64,000 bases of DNA, taken from Phycisphaerae bacterium RAS1 (GTDB lineage Bacteria; Planctomycetota; Phycisphaerae; UBA1845; Fen-1342). Each line of letters starts with the position of its first letter. Position 1 is the stretch's first letter. The notes under the pieces are model-generated. The model was not told the DNA's origin, did not search any database, and was given only the letters and a program-made list of their open reading frames with translations. This document shows positions 6,946 to 47,060 of this stretch, in pieces. The translations under genes and the position numbers were made by a program. Location: contig SMLU01000003.1 in assembly GCA_007859745.1 (NCBI GenBank), positions 1 to 64,000 of the forward strand, in the 5' to 3' direction.

Positions 6946-7830
6946 ATGCGAATCGACGTTTTGACACTGTTTCCCGAGGTAATGTCGCCGTATCTGGCGG
7001 CCAGCATCCTCGGTCGTGCGCAAGCCGCCGCTTTCGCTGAAATTCATCTCCACCAGCTTCGCGATTACTCCACCGACCCACATAAGAAAGTTGACGATCG
7101 CCCCTTCGGCGGCGGCCCCGGAATGGTGCTAATGTGTCAGCCCGTCGTCGATGCGGTCGCCGCGATTGAAAAACTGGACCAGCGCCCGGCCCTGCGGATC
7201 ATGCTCACCCCGCAGGGCCGGCCCTTTACGCAGCAGACCGCCCGCCGCTTTTCTGCCGCTCCTCGACTTCTGCTCATCTGCGGCCACTACGAAGGCTTCG
7301 ACGAACGCATCGTCGCGCTGCTGCAACCCGAAGAAATCAGCCTCGGCGATTTTGTCCTCACCGGAGGCGAAATCGCCGCTCTCGCAATGATCGATAGCGT
7401 CGTCCGGCTGCTGCCGGGCGTTCTCGGAAACGACGAGACGCTCAGCGCCGAGTCGTTCGACAACGGCCTGCTCGACTGTCCGCACTACACCCGCCCGCGC
7501 GCGTTTCGCGGGCTGGAAGCGCCGGCCGTGTTGCTCTCCGGCAACCACGCGGAAATCGCCGCGTGGAGGTCGCAGCAGGCCCGCGCGCGAACGGCCGAGC
7601 GCCGCCCGGATTTGCTGGAGGCCGCGCCACTCACGGACCAGCCTCTGGGGGACCGGCCTCTGGCCGGCCTGGCGAACGCCGGTAGCGGCCGGCCCCCGTG
7701 CCGGCCGTCGATGGCCGAAGACCGTTCGCACGATGTACGGCCGGCACGGGGGCCGGCCGCTACCGACCTGTCGCCGGCGGTGCGTACTTCGTCGTGCCCG
7801 GCTCTGCATCCGATGGTCTCGTCCTGCTGA
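6946..7830 (+). CDS. trmD: tRNA (guanine-N1)-methyltransferase
   Basis: TrmD methylates G37 of tRNAs that read CNN codons, preventing +1 frameshifting. The SPOUT-class knot and substrate motifs are clear: MRIDVLTLFPEV, DDRPFGGGPGMV, CGHYEGFDERI, and ISLGDFVLTGGE. The canonical protein would end near residue 228 (RRPDLL). The frame continues about 66 residues through copies of a GC-rich hairpin repeat, including a 27-bp inverted repeat at about 7680-7706/7740-7766, giving 294 aa. The tail is repeat-derived and probably disordered. The gene lies between rpsP and rplS and is probably co-transcribed with them. Confidence 0.95.
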   Translation: MRIDVLTLFPEVMSPYLAASILGRAQAAAFAEIHLHQLRDYSTDPHKKVDDRPFGGGPGMVLMCQPVVDAVAAIEKLDQRPALRIMLTPQGRPFTQQTARRFSAAPRLLLICGHYEGFDERIVALLQPEEISLGDFVLTGGEIAALAMIDSVVRLLPGVLGNDETLSAESFDNGLLDCPHYTRPRAFRGLEAPAVLLSGNHAEIAAWRSQQARARTAERRPDLLEAAPLTDQPLGDRPLAGLANAGSGRPPCRPSMAEDRSHDVRPARGPAATDLSPAVRTSSCPALHPMVSSC

Positions 7831-7888
7831 GTTTGCCGCGGCGGCGCGGGAAGCGTTGACCGCTCAGAATGGAAAGTGAGTCGCTGCG

Positions 7889-8362
7889 ATGAGAAACCCC
7901 CTGTTTGATGTCGTCGAGAAGAAGTACAAACGCGCCGCCGTCCTCGATTTTGAGATCGGCGACACGGTCGTCGTAACCATCCGCATCGTCGAAGGCGACA
8001 AGGAGCGGCTTCAGGACTTCGAGGGCGCCGTGATCGCCCGCAAAGGCAGCGGCCTGGACGAAATGTTCACCGTCCGCCGCCTGGTAGGCAACGAGGGCGT
8101 CGAGCGCATCTTCCCCGTGCACTCGCCCAAGATCGCGTCCATCAAGAGCGTCCGCAGCGGCAAGATCCGCCGCTGCAAGCTCTACTTCCTGCGCGACCGC
8201 GTCGGCAAGGCCCGCAAGCTCCGCGAGCGCCGCATCTCCGCCGAAGCCCGTAAGGCCGCGTCCGACGCCCGCGCCGCGCGCGCCAAGGTGGTGGCCGAAG
8301 CAGCCGAGGCCGTCGCCGCCGCCAAGGCCGGCCGCGGCGAGCCGGCGCTGGCGTCAAGCTGA
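7889..8362 (+). CDS. rplS: 50S ribosomal protein L19
   Basis: 157 residues. The conserved core covers about residues 1-112, including [24 protein letters not shown] and FTVRRL...GVERIFP. L19 sits at the 30S-50S interface. A purine-rich GGAAAGTGAG lies upstream of the ATG. The C-terminus has an Ala/Arg/Lys-rich extension of about 40 residues beyond the 115-residue bacterial norm. Such extensions are not needed for the core fold. Confidence 0.97.
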
Positions 8363-8386
8363 GCCGATCCGAGCCGCGACCCTTCG

Positions 8387-8502
8387 TAGGGTCCGCTGTG
8401 CGGACCTCTTCTTCCGTCAGCACGGTGGCGGCCTGCGGAAAAAAGGTCCGCACAGCGGACCCTACCGTCTGCGGAAAAAAGGTCCGCACAGCGGACCCTA
8501 CC
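8387..8502. repeat. Inverted and tandem copies of an 18-bp hairpin repeat
   Basis: The unit TAGGGTCCGCTGTGCGGA and its reverse complement TCCGCACAGCGGACCCTA occur in one forward and two inverted copies, separated by A/T-rich CTGCGGAAAAAAGG. They fill the gap between rplS and yraN and could form a strong stem in the transcript. Confidence 0.85.
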
Positions 8503-8534
8503 GTCTCAGAAGGCGGCTTGGACGAACCGGGACT

Positions 8535-8918
8535 ATGGCAGCGCAGCGCAACTCACGTGACGCCGATCCGCGGCACGTCCTGGGGGCGCAGGGCGAGGCC
8601 CTGGCCGAGTCTCACCTTCGCAACCTCGGGTACAAGCTTCTGGCACGTCGCTTCTCGACGCCGGTCGGCGAGATTGACCTCGTCATGCGCGACGCCGGCG
8701 CGATCGTCTTCGTCGAAGTGAAATCGCTCCGCAGCGACCGCTGGAGCGATCCGGAATCCAGAGTCACGCCCGCCAAGCAGCGCAAGCTGCAATCAGCCGC
8801 CGAGTGGTATCTCAACCGGCATCGCCTCGCGGCCAGGGCCGTGCGTTTCGACGTGGTGGCAGCCGTCATCCCCGAAAATGGCGATCCGCAGATCGTGCAT
8901 TTTCCGGATGCGTTTTAG
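8535..8918 (+). CDS. yraN: UPF0102 (YraN) family nuclease-like protein
   Basis: 127 residues with the family core: LGAQGEALAESHL near the N-terminus, then GEIDLVMRDAGAIVFVEVK, the PD-(D/E)XK-like E-x-D...E-V-K pattern. This is followed by SRVTPAKQRKL. The family is restriction-endonuclease-like by fold, but its cellular role is poorly defined. The position after rplS is conserved in many bacteria. Here a hairpin repeat cluster separates the two. Confidence 0.92.
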   Translation: MAAQRNSRDADPRHVLGAQGEALAESHLRNLGYKLLARRFSTPVGEIDLVMRDAGAIVFVEVKSLRSDRWSDPESRVTPAKQRKLQSAAEWYLNRHRLAARAVRFDVVAAVIPENGDPQIVHFPDAF

Positions 8919-40947: not shown

Positions 40948-41398
40948 TTAGCGCTTCTCCACCGTCCGCGCCTGCATCGCCTTCTGAATCAGCCCCACGA
41001 ACTCCGCCCGATACTCCGCGAAATCCGCGCCCCGGGCCGTGTCCGCGGACATCAGCGCCTCGTCGAGCGTCCACGCCCCGCAATGTTCCGAGCCGCGCAG
41101 CGACATGCCAAACGCCGCCACCGCCGCCGCGAAACGAAAATCGTCCGACGCTTCGTAGAACGCCGCCCCGTCGTCGCCGATTGGAAATTCCAGGAGCCGG
41201 CTGTCGCCGCCCTCGGGCTGCTTGTACCGAATCTTAAGCGTCAGCGTCTCCATCGCCTCGCCCGTCAGCCCCGCCGCCGTCGCAAGTTGCCCCGGCGTCT
41301 GGTACCGCAGCGGATCGACGTTGGTCTCCTGCAGCGCATCGGCGACGGCCGGGTCGTACCCCGTGACCGCGGGCGTACCGACGTTGCGGCGTTGAGCT
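40948..41398 (-). pseudogene. C-terminal remnant of a YfbK-like VWA/DUF3520 protein
   Basis: The minus-strand frame reads a partial DUF3520 domain: TNVDPLRYQTPGQL, LTLKIRYKQPEGG, DDFRFAAAVAAFGMSLRGSE and YRAEFVGLIQKA. These are characteristic of the C-terminus of YfbK/planctomycete VWA proteins. The open frame starts at an in-frame stop at 41397-41399, right next to the inserted ATPase gene. The VWA domain that should precede it is absent. A 101-residue product could start at 41253, but it would be a fragment. The N-terminal remnant lies at 43119-43367 on the same strand. Confidence 0.85.
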
Positions 41399-41406
41399 TA
41401 AGTTCG

Positions 41407-41412
41407 TATTCT
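41407..41412 (+). promoter_or_regulatory. Putative -10 box 7 nt before the ATPase/DUF4435 gene
   Basis: TATTCT lies 7 nt upstream of the ATG, with no Shine-Dalgarno. The gene could thus bring its own promoter, consistent with an independently transcribed insertion. Confidence 0.35.
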
Positions 41413-41419
41413 ATTCGGT

Positions 41420-43135
41420 ATGGCTCCGAATGAAGCAACCGAAGCTACAATGAGATTTTCCATTCATCTACCGGCGGAGTCACCCCCTACGGGGCGCCCC
41501 GAACTTAGGGCAGAATTCGGCCGAATCACGGTGCTATTGGGTCCCAACGGCAGCGGCAAGTCGAAGCTGCTTCGCACTATCAAGGACAAGTGCTCGCTGC
41601 GGTTCGGTGTCGGGCCGCGCCCGGTGCTGTTCGTCGAGGGCGGTCGATCCGTGCAGGTTCAAGCAACGATCGGTTTTTCACCCCCGGATTTCCTGTCCAC
41701 TGTTGAAGCCGCTAACCATGGATACCGAGAGGCGTCGGCGCAGGGAACGTCATCGGCGCGATTCCGTCGCGCGGTGAACGCGCTGGAACGAGAAAGCGAC
41801 GTCATTTCCAATGGATACCTGCGGGAAATGCAAAGGTGGGAGGCGAATCCGACGATCGGAGACCGGCCACGGACGCCGCGGCTTCCGATCGACCAACTAG
41901 CGGAATCATTCGGCCGGATCTTCCCGAACAATTCCATGGAGGTACGCGATCGTGTCAAGAGCCTCGTGTGCACGCGGGAAGGCGAGACCTACGGCGTTAA
42001 TGAACTGTCGGATGGCGAACGACAGGTACTCGTGATTTTGGCGGACGTGCTACTGATCTCTTCCAACAGCCTCGTTGTTGTCGATGAACCGGAGCAGAAC
42101 CTGAACCCGGCACTTGCGTGTCGCTTGTGGGACGAAGTCGAGGCACAAAAGCCGGAGTGCGTGTTCGTCTATGCAACGCACTGCGTTGCGTTTGCCCTTC
42201 GGAGAAGTGTCGAGCGAATCATCATTCTGCGGTCCGGTGCGGGGGAGGCGCTTGCCATCGGGTCGATCGGAGAAATACCGCCGGAAGAACTGCGGGAGCT
42301 TCTTGGAACGATTCCGGGGATTCTCTCGACCTCCGCGGTTCTTTTTGTAGAGGGTGACGACGCCTCCTTCGACCGGGAGTTCTTCGAATGGATTCTAGGC
42401 GCGCCTAACGTGTCGGTAATACCCGTCCGCTCGTGCGAGCAGGTTCGAAAGTTCGCATCCGCATCGGGCGCGGTGCTCAATCGTGCGCTGGCCGGCCTGA
42501 CGACTTGGGGCGTGGTGGATCGCGACTTCGGGGACTCAGAGACAAAGGCAGGCAACTGGACGGTACTTCGCTTGCATGAATCGGAGTCGTACCTGTGCCA
42601 TCCACAACTGCTTGCGGACCTTCATTCCAAGGTAGGGTTGAGTAAGCAGTCGTGGCCTCGTGAATCGATCGCTTCTTTGATCCGCGAGTTCTGCAAGGAG
42701 CGCCGAATACAAATTGCCCTTCGTCGCGCTTGCAGTGTTCCTGCCGAGTGTTCTGTTGGCGCGCTTCATCGCGCCGAGATTGCTGCGGCCACAGACAAGC
42801 ACGCCGCGCGCGCCCGAATAAAGGCTTCGTTCAAGTTGGATCCGCAGAAACTCGAAGATGCCGAGAAGCGCGCGATAAGTGCCTTTGATAGGGAGCTAGA
42901 GCGAGTCGATGACGCGCTCGCCTCGGAGAATCCAGAGGACTGGCTCGCCATTGCTCCCGGCAAGGAGCTGCTTGCGCATCTCTGCAAGCAGCTTGAATTG
43001 AAGGACTGGTGCATGGCACTTCGGCTCTGCGTCAAGCACGTCCGGGTCGAGGACTACAAACACTTGCGCCATCTTCGTGATGAGCTTCGTCGGAATCTGA
43101 ACGTTGGCGGTCTCGCCGCTATGGGAGCGAGCTAG
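41420..43135 (+). CDS. ABC-type AAA ATPase fused to DUF4435/TOPRIM domain (PARIS-merge-like defence candidate)
   Basis: 571 residues. The N-terminal ATPase has Walker A GPNGSGKS (41-48), ABC signature NELSDGERQ (194-202), Walker B LVVVDEPEQNLNP (218-230) and the switch His in YATHC (254). The C-terminal part matches DUF4435/TOPRIM: FVEGDDASFDREFF (Glu311), VVDRDF (Asp367, Asp369) and RLHESESYLCHPQLL, like the E-x-E-N-Y-L segment of these nucleases. AriA (ATPase) and AriB (DUF4435) form the PARIS anti-phage system, and single-chain fusions are known. Other overcoming-lysogenisation-type nucleases are alternatives. GC content and third-base use are visibly lower than in neighbours. The gene lies between two halves of a broken YfbK-like gene, so it looks acquired. 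Confidence 0.82.
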   Translation: MAPNEATEATMRFSIHLPAESPPTGRPELRAEFGRITVLLGPNGSGKSKLLRTIKDKCSLRFGVGPRPVLFVEGGRSVQVQATIGFSPPDFLSTVEAANHGYREASAQGTSSARFRRAVNALERESDVISNGYLREMQRWEANPTIGDRPRTPRLPIDQLAESFGRIFPNNSMEVRDRVKSLVCTREGETYGVNELSDGERQVLVILADVLLISSNSLVVVDEPEQNLNPALACRLWDEVEAQKPECVFVYATHCVAFALRRSVERIIILRSGAGEALAIGSIGEIPPEELRELLGTIPGILSTSAVLFVEGDDASFDREFFEWILGAPNVSVIPVRSCEQVRKFASASGAVLNRALAGLTTWGVVDRDFGDSETKAGNWTVLRLHESESYLCHPQLLADLHSKVGLSKQSWPRESIASLIREFCKERRIQIALRRACSVPAECSVGALHRAEIAAATDKHAARARIKASFKLDPQKLEDAEKRAISAFDRELERVDDALASENPEDWLAIAPGKELLAHLCKQLELKDWCMALRLCVKHVRVEDYKHLRHLRDELRRNLNVGGLAAMGAS

Positions 43136-43367
43136 CCGCCGCGTCGATCATCGCCGTTCGTTCGGCGCTGCTCAGGGCGATTGCCGATCCGGCTGCGGTG
43201 CTCGCCGCCGCGTCGCTCAGCATCGCCGCGGTTCGTCGGATGTTCTCCACCTCCACCCGCAGCGTCGGCGAGCGCTTCAGCGCCGCCGCCACCGCCGCCC
43301 GCTGATTCGCGTCGAGCTCGTTCAGGACATAGGCCGTCAGTCGCGGATCGTTTGGGTCTAGTCGCAT
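43119..43367 (-). pseudogene. N-terminal remnant of the YfbK-like VWA protein
   Basis: 82 codons: MRLDPNDPRLTAYVLNELDA, then AALKRSPTLRVEVENIRRTA and LSSAERTAMIDAAAS. This is the usual N-terminus of planctomycete YfbK-like proteins (a short helical region before the VWA domain). The frame ends 16 bp inside the ATPase gene at a stop that belongs to the inserted DNA. Strand and order relative to the C-terminal remnant fit a single gene cut by the insertion. The intervening VWA domain, probably more than 250 residues, has been lost. Confidence 0.82.
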
Positions 43368-43439
43368 CGTGAATTCCCCAGGTGCGAGCCTCGTCCGGTG
43401 CGGCGAGTGGCTCTGCGTGTGATCAGCCCCGAAGAGCCT

Positions 43440-43790
43440 GGGAATGAAATGGGTGGGACGGGCGTCTCGCCCGTCCCGGCCGCATCAGGAACGGGCAAGA
43501 TGCCCGTTCCACCCGAGACAACTCTCAGCCCCGGAGGGGCGAAAGAGTAAAGCCCACGGCGCGAGCCGTGGGTGCGCCGCGCCGTGGAACGAATCTCTAA
43601 GAAATCTCCAAGCCCCGGAGGGGCGAAAGAAGTTCTCGCTCGAAGCGGCGAAAGCGTGGCAGGCGTTCTGTCGCCCCTCCGGGACTTTCCCGAAACGAGA
43701 CATATGTGAGGATTCGGTTGGGGGCGCGGAGACCCCGGGCTTGCGCCCGGGGCTTTATTCTGTCGCCCCTCCGGGGCTAAGGTCATCATC
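43440..43790. repeat. Cluster of hairpin repeats (family 3 and CCGGAGGGGCGA type)
   Basis: 43451-43507 is a copy of GGGCGTCTCGCCCGTCC...GGGCAAGATGCCCGTTC. Then AGCCCCGGAGGGGCGAAAGA occurs twice in forward form (about 43531, 43611) and in inverted form at about 43671 and 43767, with further hairpins such as CCCACGGCGCGAGCCGTGGG. No complete gene is seen between the YfbK remnant and the reductase remnant. Confidence 0.88.
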
Positions 43791-46454: not shown

Positions 46455-47060
46455 GTGCACAACCAGCTTGCGCCGATCCCCGACTCGCCGCCCGTGCCGC
46501 TCTACGACGGCCTGCGCGCCACCGCCGATGAATATCTGGCGCTGGCAGACGACGACTTCCGTTATGAGCTGATTGACGGGGTGATCCTGATGTCGCCAAG
46601 TCCGCTGCCGTTGCACCAGCGCGTCGCGTTTGAAATTGCCTACCAGCTTGAGGCGTTCCTGCGGCAGCGCCCGATCGGAATGGTCGTCCCCGAGGTGGAC
46701 GTGAAGCTCTCCGACAAGCTCGTCTACCGACCCGAACTCGTTTTCGTGCGTCAGGACAATCTGAAGCGGATCGCCCCGAGAATAACGTTCACGCCCGACG
46801 TCGTCGTCGAGGTGATCTCCCCTGCCTCCCGGGGCCGCGACACGCGCACCAAGTTCGACGACTATCAGCGCGTCGGCGTCGCCGAGTATTGGCTGATCGA
46901 CCCGCAGAACGAAGCGACGACGTTCTACCGGCTCGAAGGAGACCGATACGTTGACGCGTCGCCGCCGGCCGGGCAGGAAGCCTTCGAAAGCCGCGCGGTT
47001 GAGGGCTTCTCGCTGGACCTCGTAGCTCTTCGTCGGGCGTTTCACGCATTCGGTTCGTAA
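46455..47060 (+). CDS. Uma2-family (DUF820) putative endonuclease, copy 2
   Basis: 201 residues from a GTG start with GAGGA 10 nt upstream. It shows the same PD-(D/E)XK-like core as copy 1: YELIDGVILM, EVDVKLSDKLVYRPELVFV, PDVVVEVISPASRGRDTRTK and GVAEYWLIDPQ. It is about 22 kb from copy 1 and clearly diverged from it, so this is not a recent duplication. Function is unknown. Confidence 0.88.
   Translation: MHNQLAPIPDSPPVPLYDGLRATADEYLALADDDFRYELIDGVILMSPSPLPLHQRVAFEIAYQLEAFLRQRPIGMVVPEVDVKLSDKLVYRPELVFVRQDNLKRIAPRITFTPDVVVEVISPASRGRDTRTKFDDYQRVGVAEYWLIDPQNEATTFYRLEGDRYVDASPPAGQEAFESRAVEGFSLDLVALRRAFHAFGS

What the first reader, a model, noticed from the sequence alone, without database searches (positions are those of the whole stretch)
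40948..43367. Defence-type ATPase/DUF4435 gene inserted into a YfbK-like gene
On the minus strand, an N-terminal YfbK-like fragment (43119-43367) and a C-terminal DUF3520 fragment (40948-41398) lie in the right order on either side of a plus-strand gene. The insert is visibly less GC-rich than its flanks. The VWA domain between the fragments is lost, so the event was a replacement rather than a simple insertion. The short sequence GAGCT occurs at both junctions (41394-41398 and 43129-43133); this may be a small target duplication or chance. No transposase or integrase is present, so the way it moved is unknown. If confirmed, this marks a site where defence genes enter planctomycete chromosomes.
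Basis: partly seen in the sequence, partly recalled or inferred. Interest (0 to 1): 0.9.

Follow-up and report, generated by a model that had tools for sequence, protein, structure and literature searches.

The report
Foreign defence gene replaced YfbK's middle
A single foreign gene resembling a known bacterial anti-phage alarm protein has taken the place of the middle of an ordinary bacterial gene, leaving both ends of that gene behind; it is a clear and apparently recent gene replacement, but only one case of it was found.

Summary
The minus-strand pieces at 43119-43367 and 40948-41397 are the N- and C-terminal ends of one YfbK-like protein: both match the two ends of a single long open frame in 19 of 20 fetched relatives' loci. 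About 584 residues (474-768) are missing, including the VWA part; no YfbK-like copy of them was found elsewhere in the genome. In their place is one plus-strand gene, 41420-43135, in the lowest-GC 1.73-kb stretch of the window (58.6%; mean 66.3%, sd 1.9), with no close relative among the 114 held genomes of its order.

The inserted protein is a divergent fused AriA-AriB (single-gene PARIS-type) ATPase-Toprim protein: PADLOC AriAB E=3e-41; AriA leads its profile and structure matches. It looks intact; infection sensing followed by Toprim RNA cleavage is inferred.

The remnants have hardly decayed, so the event looks recent. The GAGCT pair is expected by chance (12-64%). The wider claim, a site where defence genes enter, is not supported: no other locus examined carries such an insert, and no defence enrichment was seen beside 19 intact copies. 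How it arrived is unknown.

The parts
43119..43367 (-). N-terminal remnant of the YfbK-like gene (82 aa; anti-sigma/zinc-finger-like head). Aligned conserved part about 43218-43379; the last few codons and the stop lie at or in the insert.
   Evidence: matches the N-terminus of 19 of 20 relatives' frames (alignments); keeps 12 of 15 columns conserved at 85% in 16 aligned relatives, 3 others dropped for lack of the motif used to cut them out
40948..41397 (-). C-terminal remnant of the same gene (149 aa, last two thirds of YfbK_C); a TAA in this frame stands at 41398-41400
   Evidence: PF12034 E=2.6e-26; 42-53% identity to relatives; keeps 31 of 33 columns conserved at 90%
41399..43133 (+). inserted low-GC segment; borders good to a few tens of bases only
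   Evidence: GC 58.6%; change points 41392/43105, support 41352-41408 and 43065-43189
41420..43135 (+). fused AriA-AriB (PARIS-type) gene, 571 aa; alternative start ATG at 41450. Stop TAG 43133-43135 lies at the right border.
   Evidence: PADLOC AriAB 139.7 bits E=3e-41; fold matches AriA and a PARIS chain; alternative start judged from the alignment
41540..42181 (+). ABC-ATPase core: Walker A GPNGSGKS (res. 41-48), signature LSDGER (196-201), Walker B VVVDEP (219-224), TH (253-254)
   Evidence: G41, N43, G44, G46, K47, S197, G199, E200, D222, E223, T253 invariant in 8 and in 20 sequences; motif names recalled
42335..42586 (+). Toprim/DUF4435 core: FVEG (E311), D318, DRD (D367, D369), E389
   Evidence: E311, D367, D369, E389 invariant and D318 nearly so in 20 sequences; 5 of 7 relatives pass PF14491
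41394..41398 (+). GAGCT at the left border
   Evidence: sequence; chance level
43129..43133 (+). GAGCT at the right border, running into the stop codon of the inserted gene
   Evidence: sequence; chance level

Best explanation
A horizontally acquired single-gene PARIS-type defence gene replaced the central 1.4-2.3 kb of a resident YfbK-like gene (the region after the anti-sigma-like head, vWF_A, VWA and the first third of YfbK_C) and inactivated it. Shown: both ends belong to one protein, no YfbK-like copy of the middle was found elsewhere in the genome, the insert is foreign in composition and family, and it consists of one gene with its start 20 or 50 bases inside one border and its stop codon on the other. 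Inferred: the event is recent; DNA carrying little more than this gene was joined in by illegitimate (perhaps microhomology) recombination with loss of the target's middle, in one step or as insertion followed by deletion. The gene product most likely works like PARIS: the ATPase half senses an infection signal and holds or releases the activity of the Toprim half, which cleaves RNA (tRNA in E. coli AriB), shutting down growth of the infected cell.
For: Same intact parent in 19 of 20 loci; 584 residues missing at the median, 474-768 in 18 relatives; the missing part holds vWF_A and VWA in 3 of 3 relatives scanned; no other YfbK_C in the genome and only three generic VWA matches of 26-39% for a relative's middle, whereas the VWA part of G003's YfbK is 54-72% identical to that of 15 of 19 relatives, the other four giving longer alignments at 40-42%; GC minimum of the window; inserted gene matched in 7 of 392 phylum genomes and 3 of 114 order genomes, own included, the others at 31% identity or less; 31 of 33 conserved C-piece columns kept, within the 88-100% seen when each relative is left out in turn. 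PARIS side: AriAB profile, AriA first among solved structures by profile (E=3.9e-15), fold Z 13.4 (rmsd 3.9, 219 residues) to AriA for residues 9-275 and Z 13.1 (rmsd 4.8, 219 residues) to 8ux9_A for residues 288-561; a relative in G338 lies between DrmD and DrmMI genes; relatives also occur in 25 plasmid records and 30 viral-contig loci, so the family is found on mobile DNA. PARIS mechanism: PMC12409363 (passages).
Against: No empty site: relatives at this locus are 53% identical or less, none of the genes next to the window's locus was found beside their YfbK (only two window genes about 15-22 kb away and a paralogous sigma gene at 53.8 kb had matches), and the ECF sigma match seen near YfbK in 10 of 21 loci is absent here, so the surroundings differ too. 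No recombinase, terminal repeat or promoter signature. The C-piece's mean identity to relatives, 43.5%, is at the low end of theirs to each other, 42.1-52.9%, so some decay is not excluded. Assembly error cannot be excluded without reads. The protein is only 18-26% identical to its relatives, scores 140 bits against 444-509 for four of five fused relatives, and the structural match of its mostly helical second half rests on one row of a model of middling confidence, so its sensing and target may differ.
Confidence: 0.85

Rival explanations
1. Two independent events in the other order: the YfbK-like gene first lost its middle (or was broken by rearrangement), and the defence gene came in later at the scar. 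This shares everything with the best explanation except the order of events.
For: A sigma gene next to the locus is missing as well. Broken YfbK ends exist without defence genes: G181 (L084) keeps only the C-end in the stretch fetched.
Against: Insert borders and remnant borders coincide within tens of bases on both sides, and the remnants have barely decayed.
Confidence: 0.3
2. The site is a hotspot or dedicated entry point for defence genes.
For: One defence gene here; G003 also has a YfbK C-end joined to another gene at about the same linker.
Against: G003's junction lies about 470 bases from a contig end and joins an antisense internal piece of what looks by eye like a sulfotransferase, so a chimera or rearrangement is likelier; none of the 20 fetched YfbK loci has a defence insert; PADLOC at E<=1e-20 on 104 flanking open frames of 19 loci gave only subtilase (2 members), UzuA and type II MTase matches.
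Confidence: 0.04
3. Assembly chimera: the defence gene was stitched into the YfbK-like gene by the assembler.
Against: The contig is 516,616 bases of a 7-contig, 5.5-Mb genome at 99.2% completeness; two joins would be needed.
Confidence: 0.06
4. The remnants are still functional small genes (a free anti-sigma-like head and a free YfbK_C tail).
For: No stop or frameshift in 82 and 149 codons; 31 of 33 conserved columns kept.
Against: Both frames end or begin at stops at the junctions; the C-piece's first ATG leaves only 101 aa; the vWF_A and VWA parts are gone; no sigma gene was found just upstream.
Confidence: 0.06

Closest known systems
PARIS, single-gene (fused AriAB) form; PMC9122126 (passages) and PMC12409363 (passages)
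   Same: AAA_21-type ABC ATPase followed by a DUF4435/Toprim domain in one polypeptide; catalytic residues of both halves kept; best solved-structure matches are AriA and a chain of the PARIS complex.
   Different: Distant (140 bits); DUF4435 itself not reached by Pfam for this sequence; occurs alone, whereas the paper's hotspots are in prophages and satellites.
OLD-family ATPase-Toprim nucleases (GajA of Gabija, class 1 OLD)
   Same: ABC ATPase plus Toprim in one chain; weaker matches to GajA and to an OLD entry.
   Different: AriAB profiles and AriA score higher. PMC10568477 (one passage) leaves open whether fused AriAB is a separate OLD class.
YfbK / DUF3520 VWA proteins with an ECF sigma neighbour
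   Same: Both remnants; intact relatives have vWF_A, VWA and YfbK_C, two of three scanned also zf-HC2, and in 10 of 21 loci a sigma match near them.
   Different: Here the middle and the sigma gene are missing.
Gene disruption by a horizontally acquired cargo gene
   Same: Host gene broken by a foreign gene.
   Different: Replacement of about the same length as the insert, with no recombinase, terminal repeat or convincing duplication.

Membership tests
PARIS, fused AriAB | ABC-type AAA_21/AAA_15 ATPase half | tested here: met
   PF13304 42.3 bits, cut-off 27; fold Z 13.4, rmsd 3.9, 219 residues to AriA over residues 9-275
PARIS, fused AriAB | DUF4435/Toprim (AriB) half in the same chain | tested here: met
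   AriAB profile spans residues 157-528; 8ux9_A Z 13.1, rmsd 4.8, 219 residues over 288-561, one row only (that this chain is AriB is inferred from chain B being AriA); E311, D367, D369 invariant. Against: PF14491 itself not reached at E<=1, though met by 5 of 7 relatives
PARIS, fused AriAB | fused-profile detection rule of PMC9122126 (AAA_21+DUF4435, threshold 20) | not tested
   their profile was not available; PADLOC's AriAB gives 139.7 bits
PARIS, fused AriAB | phage-triggered growth arrest, tRNA cleavage | not testable with these tools
   needs experiment
OLD / Gabija GajA | best match to an OLD or GajA profile | tested here: not met
   GajA 29 bits against AriAB 140; AriA above GajA by profile
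YfbK-like VWA protein (remnants) | both pieces are ends of one protein | tested here: met
   19 of 20 loci
YfbK-like VWA protein (remnants) | VWA and vWF_A domains | tested here: not met
   no match between or near the pieces, 39-47 kb, and no YfbK-like copy in the genome
Transposon or integron cassette | recombinase, terminal inverted repeats or target duplication | tested here: not met
   insert is one non-recombinase gene; no repeat pair joins the two borders in the listed results (lists capped at 20 and 25); 5-bp repeat at chance

The most novel reading that the evidence does not exclude
Fused PARIS genes move as bare one-gene units, cut from just upstream of the start codon to the stop codon, and replace resident sequence without any recombinase of their own; the same kind of unit sits inside a DISARM operon in G338 and among housekeeping-type genes, at low GC3, in G109.
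Probability: 0.08. Interest if true: 0.65.

Novelty: new member of a known kind. Interest (0 to 1): 0.33.

Why it matters
It is a clean, apparently recent example of a single defence gene replacing part of a chromosomal gene with no visible mobile element, which bears on how lone defence genes spread. The general rule cannot be drawn from one case. It also adds a divergent fused PARIS-type protein from an order where relatives of it were rare (3 of 114 held genomes, own included).

Tried and rejected
GAGCT as a target duplication: rejected as chance-level. Terminal repeats, promoter, terminator: nothing above expectation. The only genome-contig hit for the insert, L037, was a chance match of one short peptide in a locus without such a gene, dropped from all counts. 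With the single sequence, NCBIfam gave no model over its cut-off among the 25 shown and the PDB sequence search put an ABC-transporter ATPase first (E=1e-5) with an OLD entry fifth; only the profile of 20 sequences put AriA first.

Hotspot test: 104 open frames of 150 aa or more within about 4 kb of 19 intact loci, picked by a codon-composition filter that may miss or add genes; at E<=1e-20, besides the window's own AriAB, only subtilase (2 members), UzuA and type II MTase models matched. These families are broad, and one protein may be counted under several models.

Orphan YfbK C-ends: G003 (near a contig end, antisense fragment) and G181 carry no defence insert that I saw; the short frames of G333 and G259 lie at contig ends; G031's could not be judged because of unreadable bases. 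Sigma-factor remnant upstream of the N-piece: none of note (best E 0.09). Empty site by flanking genes: none found in 21 loci.

Foldseek alone put PtuA and retron ATPases first, with low TM-scores (0.21-0.29 of the query) on a model of middling confidence (pLDDT 68.9, pTM 0.56); the second aligner put AriA and a PARIS chain first. Paper searches for YfbK/DUF3520 with von Willebrand or Planctomycetes, for PARIS with AriA/AriB/DUF4435 or fusion terms and for planctomycete anti-phage systems with PARIS listed nothing on such a replacement; I saw the listings, and passages of three of the papers.

Full report
What is there. On the minus strand, 43119-43367 encodes 82 residues and 41397-40948 encodes 149 residues. 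The second is most of YfbK_C (PF12034, E=2.6e-26, profile positions 68-182 of 184). Searching 101 near relatives' genomes with it gave 30 with a match, own included, the others at 42-53% identity. I fetched 20 of those 29 others. In 19 of these 20 a single open frame matches the N-piece near its start and the C-piece at its end. In the 20th, G003, the C-end is near one contig's end and the N-end, with part of the VWA domain, runs off another contig. So the two pieces are the ends of one gene.

What is lost. Extrapolating each relative's alignment to the borders, a median of 584 residues is missing (474-768; 18 relatives). In 3 of 3 intact relatives scanned, that stretch holds vWF_A (PF12450), the VWA domain and the first part of YfbK_C. 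The own genome has no second YfbK_C, and a relative's middle finds only three general VWA proteins at 26-39% identity. By comparison, the VWA part of G003's YfbK is 54-72% identical to that of 15 of 19 relatives; the other four gave longer alignments, 551-599 positions, at 40-42%. An ECF sigma match lies near YfbK in 10 of the 21 loci compared; none of note is found upstream of the N-piece. None of the genes next to the window's locus was found beside a relative's YfbK, so there is no empty site to compare.

The insert. It lies at the GC minimum of the window, 58.6% against a mean of 66.3% (sd 1.9; 6227 overlapping windows), with GC change points at 41392 and 43105 and support ranges 41352-41408 and 43065-43189. 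Its GC3 is 0.65; the remnants have 0.80 and 0.85. It holds one gene, 41420-43135, possibly starting at 41450 by alignment. The stop codon is at the right border, and the protein aligns with its relatives nearly to their ends, so the gene looks complete. In the order, 3 of 114 held genomes have a match, own included, the others at 26% and 28%; in a spread of the phylum, 7 of 392, own included, the others at 25-31%. Vertical inheritance within the family is therefore unlikely. Relatives occur in 25 of 72,556 plasmid records, at 31% identity or less, and in 30 viral-contig loci.

What it encodes. Pfam sees AAA_21 and ABC_tran but not DUF4435. PADLOC's fused AriAB profile matches at 139.7 bits, E=3e-41, well above the PtuA, Mad or GajA profiles. 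Of seven relatives scanned, five pass DUF4435. Across 20 aligned sequences the ATPase and Toprim residues are invariant or nearly so. A profile of these 20 finds AriA first among solved structures (E=3.9e-15). The AlphaFold2 model is of middling quality (pLDDT 68.9, pTM 0.56). Aligned to PDB chains, its first half is closest to AriA (8v45, Z 13.4, rmsd 3.9, 219 residues) and its second half to chain A of the PARIS complex 8ux9 (Z 13.1, rmsd 4.8, 219 residues); the best rows of other families are retron and Septu ATPases at Z 11-12. The second half is covered by that one row and is mostly helical, so this part of the match is weaker evidence. It is best filed as a divergent fused AriAB protein. 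Its score is far below the 444-509 bits of four of five relatives scanned with the same profile, and close to the 130 bits of the fifth, its nearest relative, from G164.

How it likely works. In E. coli PARIS the AriA hexamer senses a phage protein such as Ocr and releases AriB, a Toprim nuclease that cuts tRNA; the two are sometimes one polypeptide (PMC12409363, passages; PMC9122126, passages). With the catalytic residues kept, the same scheme is the likeliest here, but trigger and target are unknown and nothing was tested. A relative in G338 sits between genes matching DrmD and DrmMI of DISARM, which supports a role in defence.

When and how it came. The C-piece keeps 31 of 33 columns that are at least 90% conserved in relatives (the set includes G003's C-end); each relative, left out in turn, keeps 88-100% of its columns. 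The N-piece keeps 12 of 15 columns at 85%, in 16 relatives; 3 of 19 were dropped because the cutting motif was not found in them. Neither piece has an internal stop or frameshift. So little decay has occurred, and the event is probably recent; against this, the C-piece's mean identity to relatives, 43.5%, is at the low end of theirs to each other (42.1-52.9%). No recombinase, terminal repeat or convincing duplication is present. Illegitimate recombination with loss of target, in one or two steps, is what remains; this is by exclusion and is inferred.

The wider claim. Evidence for an entry site is lacking. Among 104 open frames within about 4 kb of 19 intact YfbK loci, PADLOC matches at E<=1e-20 were to subtilase (2 members), UzuA and type II methyltransferase models only. 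Two other broken YfbK C-ends, in G003 and G181, show no defence gene. The finding is a well-supported single case.

Noticed in passing
L079:3806-13293 (G338): A fused AriAB gene (7071-8738) lies between genes matching DrmD and DrmMI, with gaps or overlaps of fewer than 10 bases: a PARIS-type gene apparently inside a DISARM operon.
   Followed up: partly
L057:1-854 (G003): YfbK C-end joined, at about the same linker as in the window, to an antisense internal piece of what looks by eye like a sulfotransferase, about 470 bases from a contig end; likely chimera or rearrangement.
   Followed up: partly
L084:5047-5574 (G181): Another lone YfbK C-terminal end, downstream of an acyl-CoA-dehydrogenase-like frame (named by eye); the rest of the gene was not found in the 11 kb fetched.
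   Followed up: partly
L080:6716-8305 (G109): A fused AriAB gene with GC3 0.45, followed by a small frame at 0.44, among neighbours at 0.66-0.81, just after a Mur-ligase gene.
   Followed up: partly
window 43440-43790: Several copies of a short repeat of the kind CCCCGGAGGGGCGAAAG in the gap upstream of the N-remnant, seen by eye.
   Followed up: no
L038:5020-7935 (G019): The intact YfbK-like protein has a long proline-rich insertion in the linker just before the C-terminal part, the same linker where the window's left border lies; seen by eye.
   Followed up: no
window 46455-47057: Uma2-family (putative restriction endonuclease) gene, E=6.8e-35.
   Followed up: no
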